Shown here piece by piece: positions 9,131-19,639 of a DNA stretch of 33,762 nt. The position numbers were made by a program, and so were the translations under genes. Each line of letters starts with the position of its first letter. Positions within the stretch are counted from its first letter, which is position 1. The DNA is from Paludibacter sp. (lineage in GTDB: Bacteria; Bacteroidota; Bacteroidia; Bacteroidales; Paludibacteraceae). The notes under the pieces were generated by a model. The model did not search any database. It was not told where the DNA came from and saw nothing but the letters and a program-made list of their open reading frames with translations. The DNA is taken from assembly GCA_031292575.1 (NCBI GenBank), contig JARLGX010000012.1:1-33762 (forward strand), written 5' to 3'.

Positions 9131-9203
9131 ATTTTCGACTCATTGGTCTATACGCTGCAGTTGAAAAAGTATAAGATAAAAACAGAAACACCAAAAATGA
9201 AAG

Positions 9204-9236
9204 AAAAAAGGAGATACTATTAGTATCTCCCTTTTT
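9204..9236. terminator. Strong terminator after the CLC gene
   Basis: GGAGATACT (9210-9218) and AGTATCTCC (9222-9230) form a perfect 9-bp stem with a 3-base loop, preceded by AAAAAA and followed by CTTTTTC. The A- and T-runs on the two sides make it usable from both directions, serving the CLC gene on the plus strand and the remnant on the minus strand. Confidence 0.8.
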
Positions 9237-9248
9237 CTAGTTTAAAAA

Positions 9249-9490: not shown

Positions 9491-10558
9491 CTACTGTTGT
9501 AACATTTCCATGTGGCAGTAAAGTAATTCACCACTATGTTCATCGCGGAGATGCAAGCCATTTCCTTCACAATACCTATAGGATTTACAGTTGGCGCATT
9601 TCCCTGTCCGTGTCCACGAGCGGTCACGCATGTTTTGATACCGGTTGTTCCACACATCCCAAAAGTTGTCAGTATAAATATTGCCCTGAATATAATCAGC
9701 CCGCAAGCTGGGACATGCACTGATGGATCCATCCACCAGTACCGACCCGATATGAATTCCTGCCTGACAGAAGAAAGGGCTGTCGCGTACTTCCATTTCA
9801 TAATTGCCCAGAAAACCTTCACAACCATAAGAGGCACTAATCAATCCTCCTTTCCTGGTTTGTTTGATAAATTCCATTAAACGTATAAAATCCTGTGTCG
9901 ATAGTTGCAGGATAGGGTTATCTTTGGCCCGCCCCTTTGGAAAGACAGTAAACAACCTCCAGCGTTTGACTCCTTTGCTAATCAATAAATCACGGATAGC
10001 TTCCAGGTCATCTATATTTTGTTTATTCACGCAGGTAACAATGTCATACATCAAATCCTGCGTGTGAGTGACAAGTTCAATGGCAGCTATGGCTTTTTCC
10101 CACGAACCGTTTTTACCGCGAAACATATCATGTGTTTCCGGATTAAGTCCATCCAGGCTAATGGTAATGGATCGCAATCCGGCATTTAATAAAGAATTGA
10201 AACGGGCAGGTGTCATTCCAAAACCGTTTGTGACCATTCCCCACGGAAAGCCACGTTTGTATATTTCTTCGCCGCATTTCTCCAGGTCTTTACGCATTAA
10301 CGGTTCGCCCCCTGTAATGACCACCATGGTTTTATTCGGATTGACACGCGTAGCAACAGAATCGAGTACTTTCAGGAAATCTTCCATGGGCATATCGGGC
10401 GACATGGCTTCTTTGGAGCAGTCGCTCCCGCAATGGATGCAGTTCAGGTTGCAACGAAGTGTGCATTCCCAAAACAGGTAGGTCAGTTCATGGAGTTTGC
10501 TTTGATTCCTTTTATGTTGCTGAAAAAGCGAAAGGATTATTTTCTTTTTAATATTCAT
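9491..10558 (-). CDS. Radical SAM/SPASM enzyme of the rSAM/lipoprotein system
   Basis: 355 residues. The radical SAM motif CNLNCIHC gives Cys36, Cys40 and Cys43 for the 4Fe-4S cluster that cleaves S-adenosylmethionine; ITGGEPLMRKDL is the GGE motif, and ITISLDG a later core strand. A C-terminal SPASM region (about 270-350) has cysteines in FFCQAG, SACPS, GKCANC, RYCEG and LYCHM, enough for auxiliary clusters, as in peptide-modifying enzymes. It follows the 160-residue lipoprotein by 6 bases. From memory this pairing corresponds to the NCBI families TIGR04133 (enzyme) and TIGR04134 (lipoprotein), a described but biochemically unexplained Bacteroidota system. The presumed substrate is the lipoprotein or a peptide carried by it. 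Cytoplasmic; probably the last gene of a three-gene operon. Confidence 0.88.
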   Translation of the reverse strand: MNIKKKIILSLFQQHKRNQSKLHELTYLFWECTLRCNLNCIHCGSDCSKEAMSPDMPMEDFLKVLDSVATRVNPNKTMVVITGGEPLMRKDLEKCGEEIYKRGFPWGMVTNGFGMTPARFNSLLNAGLRSITISLDGLNPETHDMFRGKNGSWEKAIAAIELVTHTQDLMYDIVTCVNKQNIDDLEAIRDLLISKGVKRWRLFTVFPKGRAKDNPILQLSTQDFIRLMEFIKQTRKGGLISASYGCEGFLGNYEMEVRDSPFFCQAGIHIGSVLVDGSISACPSLRADYIQGNIYTDNFWDVWNNRYQNMRDRSWTRTGKCANCKSYRYCEGNGLHLRDEHSGELLYCHMEMLQQ

Positions 10559-10564
10559 CCTTTC

Positions 10565-11047
10565 TTATTTCTTTTTGAGTTTAAAATCAACTGTTTTTAA
10601 GGCATGACCATCATACCAACCTCCGGTTGCATTGGTCAGATCAGTTTGCCGAAACACAACATCTTTAGTCTGTGAGTTAAAATCACCACCGTTAGCAGTA
10701 CCATCTATGTCATCCACTTTTACATGAAAAATAATCGAGTCTGAAGGAAAATGCGTAATTAGTATGTCATACTTTCCTGAACTGTCGGTTTCTTTGATTG
10801 CCAGTGTATCAATAGTCGGACCTACTAAATCCCCATTATTTTGAATCTGGGAAATAATAACCCGTATGTTTTGTACAGGCGAAGAAGTGGTGCTGTCGGT
10901 AACTGTTCCTTTCATTTCATATTCAGCGTGCGGTACTCCATATTCTACCAAAGGAGGATGGATGACATTGCAGCCCGTTAAAAAGCCAATAAACCCAAGA
11001 ATAACTATAATAATTCTGTCGTACCGTTTAAGTATCAGATTTTTCAT
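10565..11047 (-). CDS. Lipoprotein partner of the radical SAM enzyme
   Basis: 160 residues with a lipoprotein signal: basic start, hydrophobic stretch and lipobox FLTGC, so Cys26 should be lipidated. After it comes VEYGVPHAEY (34-43), a tyrosine-glycine motif I associate with the TIGR04134 lipoprotein family, then MKGTVTDSTTSSPVQNIRVI, which looks like a carboxypeptidase-regulatory-type beta-sandwich, continuing to the end. A likely envelope protein facing the periplasm or surface. The ATG overlaps the stop of the upstream gene as ATGA (11044-11047), implying translational coupling, and the radical SAM gene starts 6 bases after the stop. Whether it is the enzyme's substrate, an anchor or an assembly partner is unknown. 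Confidence 0.82.
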   Translation of the reverse strand: MKNLILKRYDRIIIVILGFIGFLTGCNVIHPPLVEYGVPHAEYEMKGTVTDSTTSSPVQNIRVIISQIQNNGDLVGPTIDTLAIKETDSSGKYDILITHFPSDSIIFHVKVDDIDGTANGGDFNSQTKDVVFRQTDLTNATGGWYDGHALKTVDFKLKKK

Positions 11048-11235
11048 GTTAGTTTTTGATGATCGGTTTGTTGAACTTTATGGATAGTAATTGTTTTGGC
11101 AGGTAAAACACCATAAAGAGGTTTAACCCCATAAGCCGGAACAGGTTCATCCGGTTTGCAGGATGCTAATAAAAAAATTGAAAATAATATCCCGACAATC
11201 AGTTTGTCATATAGTATCAAGGTAATCTTTTTCAT
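11044..11235 (-). CDS. Short lipoprotein, truncated-looking paralogue of the next gene
   Basis: 63 residues. The N-terminus parallels the next gene closely: both read LIL..YD.. then I-rich hydrophobic sequence, both place the lipobox cysteine at residue 26 (FLLASC here), and both follow with a YGV motif (AYGVKPLYGV, 34-43, here). It lacks the beta-sandwich and ends in a basic, polar tail (ITIHKVQQTDHQKLT). It is therefore either a lipidated short peptide, an attractive candidate substrate for the radical SAM enzyme, or a decayed duplicate. The intact overlap ATGA with the next start argues that it is kept in frame. First gene of the operon. Confidence 0.65.
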   Translation of the reverse strand: MKKITLILYDKLIVGILFSIFLLASCKPDEPVPAYGVKPLYGVLPAKTITIHKVQQTDHQKLT

Positions 11236-12256: not shown

Positions 12257-14629
12257 TTAGAACGGATACCCGATGGCTATATTCAATACAAGGTTATCAC
12301 TTCTCCAGGTACCACTTCCGAAGTTAATCTGATTCACTACCCATTTTTGGTTATCCGGCAACCAGGGTTTGCGTAAAGGCATGGCCACATCAAACCGCAA
12401 GACAAAGAACGAAACATCAAATCGCAATCCTACCCCTGCTCCCACTGCCAGTTCATTCATAAAAGTGGAAGCTGCAAACGGAGTTCCAATGTTTTCGGCA
12501 TTTGATTTCTGTAACCAAACATTTCCGGCATCAACAAACAATGCTCCTTTCACAAAGCGATAAATACCAAAGCGATATTCCGCATTCGTTTCAAGTTTTA
12601 TATCGCCACCAAGTTGCAAAAAAGCATTGGTATGGGTATTCTGAAGGTAAGTTCCCGGACCGAGAGAGTTAATCTGAAATGCACGGATACTATTTGGTCC
12701 TCCACTGAAAAACTCTTTGCTATAGGGCAAAGTCGACGAGTTTCCATACGAATTTGCAGCTCCGGCATATACCCTGAATGCCAGTTTGTTATTATCCCTG
12801 AAATTGTAATAAGCACGGCCATCAACACTTAACTTTATGTATTGCGAAAATGGGGAACCTACAATCTTTGACGGATAATCGGGAGTTGGCTTTTTACCTG
12901 CAACTAATTCGGCTACATAAAAGAGATTCCCTGCTGTTTCTGCATTAAAATGAAAATAGTATTGGATTGTCTTATTTGGAATTAGCTGTTCGTTATAGAG
13001 AAATGAATAATTTGCTCCGGCAATAAACTGTTCTTCGTAGCTTTTTTTCAGAAAAGGATTTAAAGCCAACAAGGCAATAAATGCAGGTGATTGGTTCCCA
13101 ATGGACGTATAACTTATACTTACCGGATTCAATTCCTGTTCAGTCAGGATGTTTTCTTTCCACTTAAACCCATATCCAAATTGGAAAGTATTCATATTAA
13201 AAAGGTTGACTCTTTGTAGAAAGTTGTATGAAAGAGTGAAATTTGTTTTTGGAATATAAATACTCTTCGATGGTTTGATATTAAAAGGAACCAGAAAGCG
13301 CGGAAATGTCAGTTCCACTTGTGGATTTAAGGAATAAGAAAATGAATTATTATTTTGTCCCAATTGTGCTTCGAACGATCCGGCCATAGTCAGATTTAAA
13401 AGCTCGGCACCTTTAAAGGTATTTCTGTTCAACAAACTTAAATTCATCCGTGGTCCGGTATAGTTGTTTGATTTAGAAACCATATCGAGTTCCGCTTGAA
13501 ATGTGTGTTTTGTCATGGGGGTCATTAAAATAGTTGCATCTAAATATCCCGTGGCGGTTGTATCGCCTTCGGAGAATTTCACCTGTACAAACTTGAATTC
13601 ACCCATCGACATTAACCGATTCAAAGTTATGTTATGATTTTCCCTGGAATAGATCTCATTTTTACGAAGATAAACCGATTTCAATATTACTTTCGGATAA
13701 ATATTCATGTCTGATTTTTTACCCAAGAATATTGTATTTTGAACCATCAAAGTATCTTTAGTACTATCGGCCACTCCATCTTTTAATGAATAATTCTGAT
13801 CGATATACACATTACGAATATGGTAAACCGCCAAAGCTCCAGCCGGAATGCTATCTTTCAACGTAAGTTTCAACGAGATTGTATGATTTACAGTTGACGT
13901 ATCTGCTTTAAAAAGTAAATAGTCGGGATTAAAATAGAAATATCCCTTGTTTTTCAGCAAGGCATCGATGCGTATCCGTTCGGCTTTTAATCTGTCCAGG
14001 TTATATTCATCACCTGCTTTAATAAAACAATTTGCTTTGTCAGAAAAAATTATATGACTCAAACTATCATCCGATATATCATAAGTTATATCTTTAATGT
14101 CATACGGCTTATGAACATGACTGGTGTAAAGAACGCTTGCCGTGTGTTTTTTTTCAATGATTTTAAATTCCGTATAGCTATTGAAATATCCCATATTGAA
14201 GAGCTTTGCATCAATTACCGCAGATGTTGCTTTTGGGTTAACACTACTCATCAATACGGGTGCTTCTCCATTTTTTCTGAGCCATTTATCAAATTTACTC
14301 TTGGGATTTTGTCCGGCAGACATGTATAGCCACAATTGAGGCTGTAACCCCAAATAGCTTTTATTTGGAAGTGGACGGACAGAAGCCTGGGCAGCCGCTT
14401 TAATACTTCCTTTGTTTACTTTCTCTGTTGACACAACCTTTATTTCAGCACCGGTATAAAGCTTATCGCCTGCGGACAAATGTTTTGTAACATTACATGC
14501 TGCAAGTAGAAAAACAAGAAATAAAATACACAAAGACCCCCTAACCCCTTTAGGGGAATTTGAAAAAACTCCGAACCGCCGAAGGGGAACTGAGTTATGT
14601 TCACTGTGTATGTTGATCTCTTTATTCAT
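12257..14629 (-). CDS. tamA: TamA-like Omp85-family outer-membrane assembly protein
   Basis: 790 residues. A lipobox-bearing start of the Bacteroidota type, LLAACNVTKHLSAGDKLYTG with Cys45, is followed by POTRA-like repeats (about 60-370) and a C-terminal 16-strand barrel (about 380-790) that contains a GPNSIRAF-type loop (FFSGGPNSIRAFQ), the equivalent of the Omp85 loop-6 region, and ends IAIGYPF with a terminal aromatic. Role by family: an outer-membrane partner of TamB for barrel-protein insertion and/or lipid transport. It follows tamB by 42 bases, so they form an operon. Odd: residues 13-32 (SVPLRRF through KGVRGS) are encoded by a palindromic intergenic-type repeat, which pushes the signal sequence 20 residues away from the only ATG. 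Alternative starts after the repeat would have to be TTG or GTG. Confidence 0.88.
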   Translation of the reverse strand: MNKEINIHSEHNSVPLRRFGVFSNSPKGVRGSLCILFLVFLLAACNVTKHLSAGDKLYTGAEIKVVSTEKVNKGSIKAAAQASVRPLPNKSYLGLQPQLWLYMSAGQNPKSKFDKWLRKNGEAPVLMSSVNPKATSAVIDAKLFNMGYFNSYTEFKIIEKKHTASVLYTSHVHKPYDIKDITYDISDDSLSHIIFSDKANCFIKAGDEYNLDRLKAERIRIDALLKNKGYFYFNPDYLLFKADTSTVNHTISLKLTLKDSIPAGALAVYHIRNVYIDQNYSLKDGVADSTKDTLMVQNTIFLGKKSDMNIYPKVILKSVYLRKNEIYSRENHNITLNRLMSMGEFKFVQVKFSEGDTTATGYLDATILMTPMTKHTFQAELDMVSKSNNYTGPRMNLSLLNRNTFKGAELLNLTMAGSFEAQLGQNNNSFSYSLNPQVELTFPRFLVPFNIKPSKSIYIPKTNFTLSYNFLQRVNLFNMNTFQFGYGFKWKENILTEQELNPVSISYTSIGNQSPAFIALLALNPFLKKSYEEQFIAGANYSFLYNEQLIPNKTIQYYFHFNAETAGNLFYVAELVAGKKPTPDYPSKIVGSPFSQYIKLSVDGRAYYNFRDNNKLAFRVYAGAANSYGNSSTLPYSKEFFSGGPNSIRAFQINSLGPGTYLQNTHTNAFLQLGGDIKLETNAEYRFGIYRFVKGALFVDAGNVWLQKSNAENIGTPFAASTFMNELAVGAGVGLRFDVSFFVLRFDVAMPLRKPWLPDNQKWVVNQINFGSGTWRSDNLVLNIAIGYPF
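14535..14592 (-). repeat. CCCCTAACCCC repeat inside the tamA N-terminus
   Basis: ACCCCCTAACCCCTTTAGGGG (14536-14556) and CCGAAGGGGAAC (14580-14591) are the two halves of a palindromic repeat related to those at 14664-14686 and 20474-20503. It lies in frame within tamA, encoding about residues 13-32, just before the hydrophobic core of the signal sequence. Confidence 0.7.
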
Positions 14630-14663: not shown

Positions 14664-14686
14664 AGTTCCCTTTAGGGATTAGGGGC
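14664..14686 (-). repeat. CCCTTTAGGG repeat forming the tamB stop
   Basis: AGTTCCCTTTAGGGATTAGG (14664-14683) has the palindromic core CCCTAAAGGG. On the minus strand it encodes the last four residues A-P-N-P and the stop codon of tamB. Same family as the repeat in tamA 75 bases away. Confidence 0.65.
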
Positions 14687-17600
14687 TGTTTTTTTCTTTA
14701 TTGTTTTCGTAAAAAGGTCTTTCCATTCGTTGAAATCATGGACATAAACAACCCCAACTCCGGTTTCAATTAACTGTCCGTCGATAGGATCTTCGTAAAG
14801 ATTATGTCTAAACCCTTTTAATAGAAAGCGACCATCTTTCGTCATTTTGTAATCTACAGTAATATCGCTGGTTACATTACTTGCCGAATTCTGTGTTGCA
14901 GCTCTTCCTTCTACATCCACAGTTCCACCAAGTTGCACGGTTAACCGGTTATTGAAAAGTTGTTTTTTCAAGCCTATCTCCACTTGTGTTCTTCCTTGCG
15001 CCTGACCTGTTTGATAATCGTTGTACGACTGAATATCAAAATTCAATCCTACACCCGGAACTAATTTCGAACTCAACTGGTTTAATTGTGTCGATAAAAA
15101 GTTTCCAACTGTTGAGCGAAGCAAAGTGGAAGTCGGGTCGGTTTCAGTTTGCAACGGGTTGTCCTGAACAAATCTGCCTAACACTAATAACGCGAAAACC
15201 TGTTTGTTTAAAGAAGATGGATCCTGGTTCAGCAGGTTTAATTCCTGATTCACAGCACCACCCAAAATTCCTTTATCTTCGGGAGCTAATTGTATTTCGA
15301 AACTAATTTCGGGTTTTAAGATGGCACCGGTTAATTTCAGTACGACCAAAAAAGGATAGGTTTGTTTATATCCGTTTTGATCGGCTGTACTTAATCCCGC
15401 CATTTGATTAGCCACCAGGTCGTAAGGTGCTGCTCTGACAGAATAGCTTGCATTGATAGTAATATTGGCATCCAAGGGAGAACCATTCCATATAATTGTA
15501 CTTCCGGTAATAATATTGAATTTCCGTTTCAGAACTGATTCCAAAGACATCAAATAACTTCCATCATTCAAATTATAAGCTCCTGTCAGACTCATTTTTC
15601 CACTACGGTCCATCGTAAAACTTAACGCTGCATCGCCTTTAACCACTAACGAATCGGTTGAAGTCGGATCCATCAATAAACGCAGCGTTGCTTCTTTATC
15701 AATTTGAATAACAGAAGAAAGGTCAAAACCTGTAAGACTCGACTTATCAATCACTTTTTTGTTTGTTTTGTATAAAATCGAATTCATATTTTGTTTCGTG
15801 TTGAATTCCACCACATCTTCGCCTTTGTCGGTAGTAAGTTTGTCTTCGGGAACTGCAAAGGTAAAGTTAGAACCCTTTTTCATCTTCAATTTAGCATTCA
15901 CTACAGGAAAAGCCATTGGTCCGTTCACGTTAATTTTGCTGTCAATAACCATTCGTCCGTAAAATTCCTTATTATCCTTCACCGTGGTGTTGAAAAGTAA
16001 AAAGTCTTTTGTATTCACCTGCAACCCATAAATATAATTGGAAAAGTTCTTCATTTTTACAAAACCATCAATTACAGCTGTATGTTGGCTTGGATCTAAC
16101 AAGGTAAAGTTCGTAAAATAGATTCCATCCGATTTCAACTGCACCGTTTCATGTTTTAATTCATACCGGTTATTGAGGTAAGTCGGATTCATAAAGGCAT
16201 TATTAAACGTCAGTTCGCCAGTTATATCAGGAGCAGCAGTACTTCCGGCCACTAAAAAGCTTCCGCTGACAGTGCCCGAAGCTTCTGTAATTTGTCCCAT
16301 CGAAAAAGCCTGAACGGTTTTCATCGAAAGAGATTGAACATCTCCCTTTATGTTGAGTGAATTAGGACCGCCCTTTGGAACAAAATATCCATTCATAGTT
16401 AGGTTATTATCTGCGCCTGCCAGTTTGGCATCAATGTCAAACCGCTCGGATGTTGGATTGTCGGCTTTCAAGGCTAAGTTTCCAATGGGAGCATTCTTAA
16501 CAAACAGGTTTGTGATGGTAGCATCGGCAATGATGCCGTAGGAGTTGTTTACCCTTTTGAGTAATACATTTCCATCCACATTGCCCCGCACTAAACTACT
16601 GTCTTTTTCCACAATTTTGGAAAGATCCTCCAGCTTGAAATTTTTAATGGCAATATTCAAATCATCATGAAAGGTATCATGCACCGAAGCAATATTCATC
16701 CTACTTTTTGCACTATTCATAAACAGATGATGAATCAGGAAACCCTGGCTTCCAAATTCAATATAATTATCGGCGGCAATGTCCCATCGGTTATTCATCA
16801 AATAGAATCCGTTGGGATCAAGCGTAAGTTTGTAGTTGGTTTTATCTTTGGTAATTTGTGCCTGAATAACCAGCTTTTTATTTTTATTATCAATCGAAGA
16901 TAAATTAGCCCGTATTTTATTATCAGCCAGTTTCCCTTCGAATAACAGATTAGCAAAGTTTATTTGGGCGTTGGAAATTCCGGAACTTGAAACACTATAA
17001 TTCAAAGCCGTAGAATCGGAATGTACATCAAGCATCAGGTCGTTAATTGCAGTTGTTCCATACAATATATGTTTCATGGTGGCATTTAGTTTCAATTCGT
17101 TTTTACGGCTATCAAAACTTCCGGTAATGATTCCCGGCTCAAATTCTTTCAGTTGAGGCAATAGCACTTCCGAGAGAATGGGATGATTGCGAAGTTGTAT
17201 TTCGAAATTGAACTTGGAACTGTCGTTTTTCTGTTTAACCGGTTTAGTGTCCGAAAAAAGAAAGAATTTATTTATAAATTGAGAAAGTGCACCGGGAAGT
17301 GAAGCCGGAGAAAGTGTGCCGTTGTACTTCAACCCCATAAGTGCACTGCTAAAATTGAGTTCACTTTTATTCGGTTGATTTACCGAGGCAACCATAACTG
17401 AATCGAGCACATATTTCTTGCCGTTGTGTGTAAGTATCAGGTTTGTAATTCCGGCTATTCCGTTTAGGTTATCAACGGTTCCTCCTTTAAAGTCGGCAGT
17501 TGCGTCCATGCCAATGCGAATATCATCTTTGCTGAAATTGAGTTTTTGAAGGTCGGCTCCCTGCACATTCAAATGAAATTTGTATTGTTCCTTATTGGGT

Positions 17601-19639
17601 GTCATATTTACCAACCCATCAAAATCCAACACCGCATTTTTATCATTCAAATTTACTTTCCCTGCAAATTCTTTTCCACTGGCTGTTCCATCAATACGGA
17701 GATTATGATAAGTATATTTGTTAAGATAAATTTGCAACACATCTGCCTTGATTTGTGCGGTCAATGTTTGTGGATTAAGTCCATGCCCATTCACTTGAGC
17801 GGATAAAGATACCGGACCATAGATGCTGTCGTTTTTCAGCAAGCTTCCCACGTCGAAATTACTAATATCCACATTCCCATTGAAATTTTCATTGGCATCG
17901 ATTGTTGCAAGCACACTGGCATTGCCATAACTGCTGCTCATGCCCATGCCGGCTTGGAAAGATTTTAGTTTTCCTTTAAAATTAATCAGCAGCGCGATGT
18001 TTTCAGGAAGATTGATGTTTGATGGAACAGCAGACCCCGCCATCATCATGATATCTTGCTTACCCGAGGTCAATTTCATATTCGGAAAAATATAATAAGC
18101 CGTTCGGGCATTGGGCAATCCGTCAATGCTGAAATCGGTTTTTAAGCGCGTATTAGTGCCTGTTTGAATAACTATATTTTCCCCTTTCAGATTATTTATC
18201 TGTCCATGTATCTGACCTGAAGCAGTGGTGGTATTTGTCTTGTTTTGAAAGAATGGTTGTGAACCAAGTTGCGGATTGAAATAGAGAATATCGGAGTTTT
18301 TGATAAGTGCTTTTTTTAGATTGATAGTGAGCATCAACGAGGGAAGCGAATTTTTCAACGATTGCAACGAAGCGTATTGCATGTTCACATCGGCATTTAT
18401 GGAAGAATTAGCCGTGTTGGCTTTAAGCTTTTTGGCCGTGATGGAGTGATTATCCATACTGAAATCAGTTTCAAACCGACTGATGGCAAAGTTGTTTTGG
18501 TCAATGGCACTGAATTTAGCAACGCTGACTTTGGTCAGGTTGGTTGAATAATACAAATCATTGGCTATGAGCGTAACCTGATGATACTGGATGTGTGAAG
18601 CATCAAAAGCATGCTGCACTTTTGGTTTGTTTGATACCTGGTAGGATAGCGAATTATTCTCAAGATTAATCTGCTTAATGCTTACTTTCCAATCGTTTGG
18701 AATTTGTGATACAGGAACTTTTGCACCTGATTGTGGAACAGATGCCAATTCGCTTGTCAGGTATTGAACATTGCTTTCCGACAAGATTATGTTGTTCGAT
18801 GATACTACTTCGTTTTGCAAATCAACTGAACCATCTTTTAATTCAAACTGCTTTATGAGTGCATAAACAGATTGATTATTTACAGCATCTCCAAAAGTCA
18901 CCGTTGAATTATTAATCCGAATGTTGCCGGCTGTAATTTTTGGTAAAACACTTATAGACTTCTTTGTTGCAGTTTTTCCCGATTTGGTCAGTTGCACATT
19001 GGCTTTTAATTTATCAACCAGCAAATCGTTCAAGTTATAGTTGGAATTCGGAAGATCAAGTTTATTGATTTTCAAATTCAGTTTTTCGAGCGAAGCCGAT
19101 ACATTCATTCCACTAAACTCATCGTTGTAACGAAGCCGGATGTTTTTCAGGCTTACATTATCAATAGTAACTGTCCATGGAGATGTTTTTTTTGCTTTGG
19201 CTGTGTCTACCTTAGCGGTATTGGCAAAGGCAGTAATCAGAAAATTATAGTTGAACAGTGAATCCGTTTTGGTGCTGTACAAGTTCAGGTTCAGGTTTTC
19301 AAAGGCTATAAAATTGATATTTATCTTATTGAATATTAAATCATAAAGTGCTATGTTCGCTTTTACTTTGCCGGCATACACTAAAGTATCTTTGTTCAAA
19401 TCGTCCAGGAAAAGTCCTTCGATCACAACCGACTTAGGAAAGGAGATACTTATGTTTTTTATCTCAACACGCGTATGTGTTTTGTTGCTCACAAAGGAAG
19501 TGGCAGCATGAATAAGCTTGTTTTGAACAGCAGGGATTTGAATTATTCCGGCTATAATGAGGAATAAAAGCACGAAAACACCAACCACCCATAACACAGC
19601 TTTGAAAGTTTTCTTTAAAATGGAACGTACTTTATTCAT
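14672..19639 (-). CDS. tamB: TamB-like translocation and assembly module protein
   Basis: 1655 residues. A short cytoplasmic start, one membrane anchor (about 13-35, AVLWVVGVFVLLFLIIAGII), then an AsmA-like N-terminal region (VQNKLIHAATSFVSNKTHTRVEIKNISI) and a very long run of beta-strand repeats, consistent with a groove spanning the periplasm. The C-terminal DUF490/TamB domain (about 1250-1640) includes DPTSTLLRSTVGNFLSTQLN, then KLVPGVGLNFDIQSY and a VEIGLKKQLFNNRLTVQLGG ending. Family role: with TamA it links inner and outer membranes in outer-membrane protein assembly or phospholipid transport. First gene of the tamB-tamA operon. The last codons (TAPNP-stop) come from a palindromic repeat, so the original C-terminus may have been a few residues longer. 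Confidence 0.92.
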   Translation of the reverse strand: MNKVRSILKKTFKAVLWVVGVFVLLFLIIAGIIQIPAVQNKLIHAATSFVSNKTHTRVEIKNISISFPKSVVIEGLFLDDLNKDTLVYAGKVKANIALYDLIFNKININFIAFENLNLNLYSTKTDSLFNYNFLITAFANTAKVDTAKAKKTSPWTVTIDNVSLKNIRLRYNDEFSGMNVSASLEKLNLKINKLDLPNSNYNLNDLLVDKLKANVQLTKSGKTATKKSISVLPKITAGNIRINNSTVTFGDAVNNQSVYALIKQFELKDGSVDLQNEVVSSNNIILSESNVQYLTSELASVPQSGAKVPVSQIPNDWKVSIKQINLENNSLSYQVSNKPKVQHAFDASHIQYHQVTLIANDLYYSTNLTKVSVAKFSAIDQNNFAISRFETDFSMDNHSITAKKLKANTANSSINADVNMQYASLQSLKNSLPSLMLTINLKKALIKNSDILYFNPQLGSQPFFQNKTNTTTASGQIHGQINNLKGENIVIQTGTNTRLKTDFSIDGLPNARTAYYIFPNMKLTSGKQDIMMMAGSAVPSNINLPENIALLINFKGKLKSFQAGMGMSSSYGNASVLATIDANENFNGNVDISNFDVGSLLKNDSIYGPVSLSAQVNGHGLNPQTLTAQIKADVLQIYLNKYTYHNLRIDGTASGKEFAGKVNLNDKNAVLDFDGLVNMTPNKEQYKFHLNVQGADLQKLNFSKDDIRIGMDATADFKGGTVDNLNGIAGITNLILTHNGKKYVLDSVMVASVNQPNKSELNFSSALMGLKYNGTLSPASLPGALSQFINKFFLFSDTKPVKQKNDSSKFNFEIQLRNHPILSEVLLPQLKEFEPGIITGSFDSRKNELKLNATMKHILYGTTAINDLMLDVHSDSTALNYSVSSSGISNAQINFANLLFEGKLADNKIRANLSSIDNKNKKLVIQAQITKDKTNYKLTLDPNGFYLMNNRWDIAADNYIEFGSQGFLIHHLFMNSAKSRMNIASVHDTFHDDLNIAIKNFKLEDLSKIVEKDSSLVRGNVDGNVLLKRVNNSYGIIADATITNLFVKNAPIGNLALKADNPTSERFDIDAKLAGADNNLTMNGYFVPKGGPNSLNIKGDVQSLSMKTVQAFSMGQITEASGTVSGSFLVAGSTAAPDITGELTFNNAFMNPTYLNNRYELKHETVQLKSDGIYFTNFTLLDPSQHTAVIDGFVKMKNFSNYIYGLQVNTKDFLLFNTTVKDNKEFYGRMVIDSKINVNGPMAFPVVNAKLKMKKGSNFTFAVPEDKLTTDKGEDVVEFNTKQNMNSILYKTNKKVIDKSSLTGFDLSSVIQIDKEATLRLLMDPTSTDSLVVKGDAALSFTMDRSGKMSLTGAYNLNDGSYLMSLESVLKRKFNIITGSTIIWNGSPLDANITINASYSVRAAPYDLVANQMAGLSTADQNGYKQTYPFLVVLKLTGAILKPEISFEIQLAPEDKGILGGAVNQELNLLNQDPSSLNKQVFALLVLGRFVQDNPLQTETDPTSTLLRSTVGNFLSTQLNQLSSKLVPGVGLNFDIQSYNDYQTGQAQGRTQVEIGLKKQLFNNRLTVQLGGTVDVEGRAATQNSASNVTSDITVDYKMTKDGRFLLKGFRHNLYEDPIDGQLIETGVGVVYVHDFNEWKDLFTKTIKKKTAPNP

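What the first reader, a model, noticed from the sequence alone, without database searches (positions are those of the whole stretch)
9491..11235. Radical SAM/SPASM enzyme with two tandem lipoproteins, one of them a 63-residue peptide-like form
Seen: a three-gene minus-strand operon, first two genes overlapping as ATGA, third 6 bases later. Both lipoproteins have the lipobox cysteine at residue 26 and a YGV motif about ten residues later, but the first stops at 63 residues. Known: an rSAM/lipoprotein pairing is described in Bacteroidota (TIGR04133/TIGR04134 by memory) without known chemistry. Inference: the short form may be the actual modified peptide, with the tyrosine-glycine motif as target, and the long form a carrier.
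Basis: partly seen in the sequence, partly recalled or inferred. Interest (0 to 1): 0.7.

Follow-up and report, generated by a model that had tools for sequence, protein, structure and literature searches.

The report
Lipoprotein-modifying radical enzyme with Tyr-Gly targets
A bacterial operon encodes a radical enzyme beside two lipid-anchored proteins that share a tyrosine-glycine site, and related enzymes suggest it may cut the core of that tyrosine out of the protein backbone and rejoin the ends.

Summary
The enzyme (9491-10558, minus) is TIGR04133 and the long lipoprotein (10565-11047) is TIGR04134. The 63-residue ORF (11044-11235) fits no family model but is a real gene: nine homologues, purifying selection. 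Of 128 related enzyme loci with 500 nt upstream, a script finds a YG-bearing lipoprotein beside the enzyme in 113; inspection adds ten YG partners. 21 loci hold a short form, 7 only short forms. YG remains where the lipid cysteine, the signal or the beta domain is missing. So YG is the likely target and both lipoproteins look like substrates; 'long form as carrier' is not supported. In a tree the enzymes join the clade that holds TIGR04103, the PlpX-type splicease family, apart from MftC and eight others, and 8 of 16 clade loci examined also have YG partners. PlpXY acts on MYG and LYG; the window has LYG and AYG, relatives MYG. Best reading: splicease-like tyramine excision in lipoproteins, inferred, not shown. 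Against it: one SPASM cysteine is missing, no PlpY-like partner was found, and half of the sister loci lack a YG partner.

The parts
11044..11235 (-). Short lipoprotein gene, 63 aa; lipobox Cys26, predicted mature lipopeptide of 38 residues with two YG sites
   Evidence: ORF; homologues; pN/pS; no NCBIfam or Pfam match at E <= 1
11128..11133 (-). First YG (Y35-G36, context PVPAYGVKP) of the short protein
   Evidence: sequence; YG in nine of nine homologues
11110..11115 (-). Second YG (Y41-G42, context VKPLYGVLP) of the short protein
   Evidence: sequence; YG in eight of nine homologues, NG in P0001
10565..11047 (-). Long lipoprotein gene, 160 aa, TIGR04134; lipobox Cys26, one YG in the linker, then a transthyretin-like beta domain (about residues 40-160)
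10937..10942 (-). YG (Y36-G37, context LVEYGVPHA) of the long protein
   Evidence: invariant in 50 of 50 aligned sequences
9491..10558 (-). TIGR04133 radical SAM/SPASM enzyme, 355 aa; C36-x3-C40-x2-C43; SPASM cysteines 264, 282, 321, 324, 330, 348; position 334 is Gly where sister enzymes have Cys
   Evidence: column counts; model mean pLDDT 89.5
9202..9238 (-). Terminator-like hairpin with a T-rich tail downstream of the enzyme gene
   Evidence: consensus scan, (5 found in the region, 2.0 expected); not evidence of function

Best explanation
The operon encodes a radical SAM/SPASM enzyme and two of its own substrates. Step 1 (inferred): in the cytosol the enzyme binds the unexported lipoproteins. 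[quoted passage not shown] Step 3 (inferred): the product is exported, lipidated at Cys26 and cleaved, leaving an electrophilic ketoamide close to the membrane. The short gene is a minimal substrate (anchor plus two YG sites); the long one has the same anchor and one site with a transthyretin-like domain behind it. A likely use is a tethered protease trap, because two papers report that spliceotide products inhibit proteases. Shown here: the genes, their conservation, the YG recurrence and the enzyme relationships. Not shown: any modification.
Against: No modification observed. TIGR04103 score only 119.7 against a cut-off of 725, and four other models (TIGR04053, AhbD, NirJ2, TIGR04347) score higher than it. 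All 14 sister enzymes have a SPASM Cys where none of 132 TIGR04133-like rows does (the window counted twice), so one auxiliary cluster must differ. PlpX works with the RRE protein PlpY, but no PlpY-like gene was found beside the enzymes or in the own genome (without a positive control). Of 16 sister loci, 8 show no YG partner; in L217 a homologue of the L218 partner has LYM for LYG. The native-like tag PIRPLYGLPI was not accepted at two FtsZ sites. Two lipoproteins beside the enzymes have YA (L158, L164). Five of 128 loci have no YG partner in view. The branch to TIGR04133 is long (1.87).
Confidence: 0.58

Rival explanations
1. YG is the target but the chemistry is another one: for example oxidation or decarboxylation of Tyr, a Tyr side-chain cross-link, or epimerisation.
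For: One SPASM cysteine is missing, and Cys47, Cys176, Cys246 and His336 are near-invariant in the family, so the active-site surroundings differ. The solved SPASM enzymes with a similar fold are a mix of peptide cross-linkers and others (their chemistry recalled). MftC, a SPASM relative, decarboxylates Tyr (PMC8326336, passage).
Against: MftC falls outside the clade. Y and G are constant while X varies (E 62, C 38, M 25, V 23, K 23 of 221 sites), which fits the reported promiscuity for X in XYG; for a cross-link I see no second conserved partner residue in the short forms (one search list, by eye).
Confidence: 0.25
2. YG is only a docking or recognition motif and the enzyme modifies something else, such as the signal peptide or the lipobox Cys.
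For: Part of the signal peptide is family-specific: an xGF-like motif before the Cys in 74 of 146 against 5 of 54 background sequences.
Against: YG persists where the Cys or the signal is absent, its first copy lies 1 to 87 residues after the Cys, and it is repeated in tandem in L120 and, in the sister clade, L207, which suits a substrate site better than a docking site.
Confidence: 0.08
3. The short gene is a truncated, non-functional duplicate of the long one.
For: Signal pattern and YG are shared with the long form; in the six-row clade L034, L035, L036, L174, L088, L089 the last two are labelled long only.
Against: Purifying selection about as strong as on the long gene, same Cys and first YG in nine of nine homologues, short-only loci (7 of 128) and at least nine changes of the short/long label forced by starred branches.
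Confidence: 0.05
4. The genes are merely linked and the enzyme acts on another molecule.
For: No biochemical test exists here.
Against: The long-lipoprotein family recurs in 102 of 134 loci, always on the enzyme's strand (122 of 122 ORFs); the next gene family recurs in 9 loci (ORFs of at least 110 residues).
Confidence: 0.04

Closest known systems
TIGR04133 / TIGR04134 (NCBIfam 'rSAM_w_lipo' and 'lipo_with_rSAM')
   Same: Enzyme and long lipoprotein both score over the curated cut-offs; same pairing.
   Different: The model names give no chemistry and do not match the 63-residue form. Short forms, Cys-less and non-secreted YG partners and the YG target are added here.
PlpX-type spliceases (TIGR04103; IPR026482 in PMC11002830)
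   Same: SPASM radical SAM, same side of a strongly supported split, XYG sites in the substrate; window KPLYGVLP resembles the tag core PIRPGYGLPI or PIRPLYGLPI.
   Different: Below the TIGR04103 cut-off; lacks one SPASM Cys; no PlpY-like partner found; substrates are exported lipoproteins instead of Nif11-type precursors. The equation of PlpX with TIGR04103 is recalled; the paper gives IPR026482.
TIGR03913, GDL-motif peptide maturases with DUF1843 peptides
   Same: Same clade; partner peptides with PYG, LYG or AYG near the start, also LYA and MYA.
   Different: Longer enzyme; cytosolic partner peptides without a signal. Chemistry unknown to me.
SuiB, anSMEcpe and the sactipeptide enzyme 5why (CteB by recall)
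   Different: 16-19% identity; different chemistry; SuiB and CteB carry an N-terminal leader-binding domain (recalled) for which this 355-residue enzyme has no room.

Membership tests
TIGR04133 | Score over the curated cut-off of 425 bits | tested here: met
   574.8 bits, profile positions 2-349 of 350
TIGR04133 | Radical SAM CxxxCxxC and a SPASM domain | tested here: met
   Pfam PF04055 82.3 bits, PF13186 34.4 bits, both over the cut-off
TIGR04134 | Long lipoprotein over the cut-off of 39.8 bits | tested here: met
   96.1 bits
TIGR04134 | Short lipoprotein over the cut-off | tested here: not met
   no match at E <= 1
PlpX-type splicease (TIGR04103) | Score over the cut-off of 725 bits | tested here: not met
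   119.7 bits
PlpX-type splicease (TIGR04103) | Shared clade with a TIGR04103 enzyme | tested here: met
   support 100/99 for the 41-row side of a 50-row tree, midpoint root, one TIGR04103 row over the cut-off
PlpX-type splicease (TIGR04103) | XYG site in the substrate | tested here: met
   two sites in the short, one in the long protein; 123 of 128 loci
PlpX-type splicease (TIGR04103) | Seven SPASM cysteines as in the sister enzymes | tested here: not met
   six of seven; position 334 is G, S or A in 132 of 132 rows (131 genes, the window twice) and C in 14 of 14 sisters
PlpX-type splicease (TIGR04103) | PlpY-like RRE partner | tested here: inconclusive
   no small ORF beside 132 loci resembles the Nostoc candidate (best E 0.22); no match in the own genome but no positive control
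PlpX-type splicease (TIGR04103) | Excision of tyramine | not testable with these tools
   needs mass spectrometry

The most novel reading that the evidence does not exclude
Bacteroidota (and at least one Treponema) carry a widespread class of backbone-spliced lipoproteins: the enzyme excises tyramine at XYG in membrane-anchored proteins and in minimal lipopeptides of 22-40 mature residues, giving lipid-tethered ketoamide traps for proteases; in the clade with CYG right at the lipobox the homologated residue would be the lipidated cysteine itself.
Probability: 0.38. Interest if true: 0.86.

Novelty: new variant of a known kind. Interest (0 to 1): 0.68.

Why it matters
TIGR04133 scores over the cut-off in 87 of 393 genomes sampled from the order, yet the literature searches made here found no open paper that gives its chemistry. 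If it excises tyramine, protein-backbone splicing would be a common modification of Bacteroidota lipoproteins, with a reactive group that can be labelled or can block proteases, and the 63-residue form would be a ready-made minimal substrate. One mass measurement decides it. Caution: Scott and others (Chem 2022) reported 939 predicted splicease systems (as cited in PMC10533398); that paper was not held, so the link may already be in print.

Tried and rejected
Rejected: the short ORF as a chance or decayed frame. Rejected: 'long form as carrier'.

Weak, not used as proof: the signal peptide as a leader for the enzyme. A family-specific pattern exists (74 of 146 against 5 of 54), but no position except the Cys is near-invariant. 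A surface-export signal after the Cys (CKPDE in the window) was considered from recall, but other short forms are basic there (CRTKPQTKYG in L112), so it is not general.

Led nowhere: papers on TIGR04133 or TIGR04134 (0 papers); Rfam at gathering scores (0 matches); promoter scan (8 found, 8.7 expected); recurring neighbour genes other than the lipoproteins (next family in 9 of 134 loci). The fold match of the long form's beta domain says nothing about function.

Limits of the counts. Of the enzyme places listed, the two of G751 were left out of the fetch by oversight; fetched later, both have a YG lipoprotein beside them, but they are in no count. 158 loci had tblastn matches at E <= 1e-30; 151 matches of at least 150 bits gave 134 distinct genes after removal of identical 3' ends. 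Twelve of the 134 (L152-L163) scored under the TIGR04133 cut-off, and 11 of the 11 of these with 500 nt upstream have a YG lipoprotein. The 173 neighbouring ORFs were chosen by a lipobox filter without regard to YG, from 35 residues up; the 106 background ORFs from 60 residues up, and both sets may hold false frames (one YG row has a mature part of 678 residues). The 75-residue limit for 'short' is arbitrary; 13 of the 25 short ORFs have a mature part of at most 40 residues. For the tree, five of 55 rows were left out (one duplicate, four distant enzymes); for the identities, P0002, P0008, L034 and L036 were left out and no gaps were allowed, so the tail figure is too low. The tree is a quick one.

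Papers: seen as passages only: PMC10533398, PMC11002830, PMC8326336, PMC10373908, PMC10885120, PMC11117315, PMC9484694, PMC10994174, PMC10434189; others as search listings.

Full report
What is there. Searches confirm the three-gene minus-strand operon to the base. The enzyme scores 574.8 bits to TIGR04133 (cut-off 425) and the long lipoprotein 96.1 bits to TIGR04134 (cut-off 39.8); the short protein matches no NCBIfam or Pfam family at E <= 1. The own genome holds one TIGR04133 gene and one TIGR04134 match over the cut-offs, both here.

The short gene is real. A protein search gave nine homologues of 54-83 residues, 68-96% identical. Nine of nine keep the first YG and eight the second; P0001 has NG there. 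Over the window and three named relatives (L034, L035, L036) pN/pS is 0.32-0.43 in six pairs, against 0.36-0.51 for the long gene. Among nine short sequences (window, seven homologues, L035) mean ungapped identity is 0.76 in the signal peptide, 0.87 from the Cys to the second YG, and 0.31 in the tail, a figure lowered by a one-residue gap in two of them.

Neighbourhoods. TIGR04133 was sought in 395 genomes across the phylum (3 over the cut-off) and 393 of the order (87 over the cut-off), plus 22 loci by pattern search, of which L055 is a distant enzyme. This gave 134 enzyme genes, 12 of them under the TIGR04133 cut-off. Of 128 with at least 500 nt upstream, 113 have a YG lipoprotein beside the enzyme by script: 92 long forms only, 14 short and long, 7 short only. 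I looked at the other 15: four are YG lipoproteins that the filter missed (L049, L090, L135, L144); L097, L107 and L117 have a YG right after what looks like an ordinary signal peptide without Cys; L175 has a Cys-less YG protein; L120 has a downstream unsecreted protein with three tandem YG units (sequence); L164 has YG lipoproteins 2.8 kb upstream, its nearer ones lack YG. L096, L127, L052, L101 and L046 have none in view. That makes 123 of 128, or 122 if L164 is not counted. Two enzymes of G751, left out by oversight and fetched later, both have YG lipoproteins.

Why YG. Lipoprotein-like ORFs chosen without regard to YG have it in 148 of 173 beside the enzyme and 15 of 106 elsewhere; YGxP in 130 of 173 and 2 of 106. 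In the alignment of 50 long forms Y36 and G37 are invariant, with T87, G91, D113 and G147. Over 221 sites the residue before Y varies (E, C, M, V, K most often) and the residue two after G is Pro in 152. The first YG lies 1 to 87 residues after the Cys; in one large group it follows the Cys directly (CYG). 55 of 150 lipoproteins have two or more YG. In the predicted structure of the long form the YG lies in a stretch without strands before a transthyretin-like domain (residues 31-40 mean pLDDT 73). The short forms are that stretch without the domain.

Short forms recur. On a quick tree of 131 enzymes and four outgroup rows, the label short against long (112 labelled rows, 21 short) needs 12 changes, at least 9 forced by starred branches; shuffled labels need 19.7 on average.

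Partners of the sisters. Of 16 sister loci judged by eye, eight have a YG partner: the Nostoc Nif11 precursor ends ALYGLPPELF; G343 and G245 have DUF1843-like peptides with PYG, AYG and LYG; Azospirillum has RPYG in one of two DUF1843 peptides; Aureibacter PYG in one of three, with YA in the others; Agathobacter has an unannotated upstream frame ending MYGTGVRM; L207 has a protein with six KYGYP units just after the enzyme; L218 has an upstream protein ending LLYGTPPVPLYQAPSK. Eight do not: six of one clade (L208-L211, L213, L216), L215, and L217, where a 72% identical homologue of the L218 partner has LYM. Several of these loci are close kin of each other.

The chemical lead. Papers seen as passages say that PlpX with the RRE protein PlpY excises tyramine from Xaa-Tyr-Gly, that natural sites are MYG and LYG, that a ten-residue tag suffices without the leader, and that spliceotide products inhibit proteases. 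The tag core PIRPGYGLPI was accepted in an Affibody and, with longer flanks, at two FtsZ sites; PIRPLYGLPI was not accepted at two FtsZ sites. The window's second site, KPLYGVLP, and relatives' VPMYGVVP and VPMYGAP look like such tags.

Against. One SPASM cysteine (position 334) is absent in 132 of 132 rows (131 genes, the window twice) and present in 14 of 14 sisters, while C47, C176, C246 and H336 are near-invariant in the family. From recall of anSME, that Cys is a ligand of the first auxiliary cluster, so that cluster is probably altered. No PlpY-like gene was found. The TIGR04103 cut-off is not reached. I therefore call it splicease-like, not a splicease.

Spread. TIGR04133 with a lipoprotein lies on records labelled plasmid of Parabacteroides distasonis (422 kb), Phocaeicola massiliensis (98 kb, unannotated; lipoprotein downstream) and Treponema saccharophilum, a spirochaete, near an invertase-type recombinase gene. 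This suggests transfer between phyla; the plasmid labels of the first two were not tested.

Novelty. The searches found no open paper that treats this family. Scott and others 2022 was not held, and its 939 predicted systems may include it.

Noticed in passing
L207 7515-8159 (G238): A 214-residue protein just downstream of a splicease-like radical SAM enzyme ends in six KYGYP units, like a multi-site precursor.
   Followed up: partly
L120, 11 nt downstream of its enzyme: A 104-residue unsecreted protein with three tandem units (ECIYGPPPG, ECIYGPPPG, ECVYGPPPG) beside a TIGR04133 enzyme.
   Followed up: partly
L197 (Treponema saccharophilum plasmid pTS1): TIGR04133 and a CYGMP lipoprotein on a spirochaete plasmid near an Mpi-family invertase gene, suggesting transfer between phyla.
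   Followed up: no
L202, L206, L212, L214: DUF1843 or similar peptides beside GDL-type maturases carry PYG, LYG, AYG, LYA or MYA near their start, so this class may share the chemistry.
   Followed up: partly
window 12257-14629, minus: TamL, the lipoprotein of the translocation and assembly module (785.8 bits), lies 1 kb from the operon; an untested 1655-residue ORF follows at 14672-19639.
   Followed up: no
TIGR04133 family, position 334 of the window enzyme: The sixth SPASM cysteine is missing in all rows compared while C246 and H336 are conserved; an unusual auxiliary iron-sulfur cluster is likely.
   Followed up: partly
L208-L211, L213, L216: A clade of SPASM enzymes next to TIGR04103 and TIGR04133 with no partner peptide that I could recognise.
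   Followed up: no
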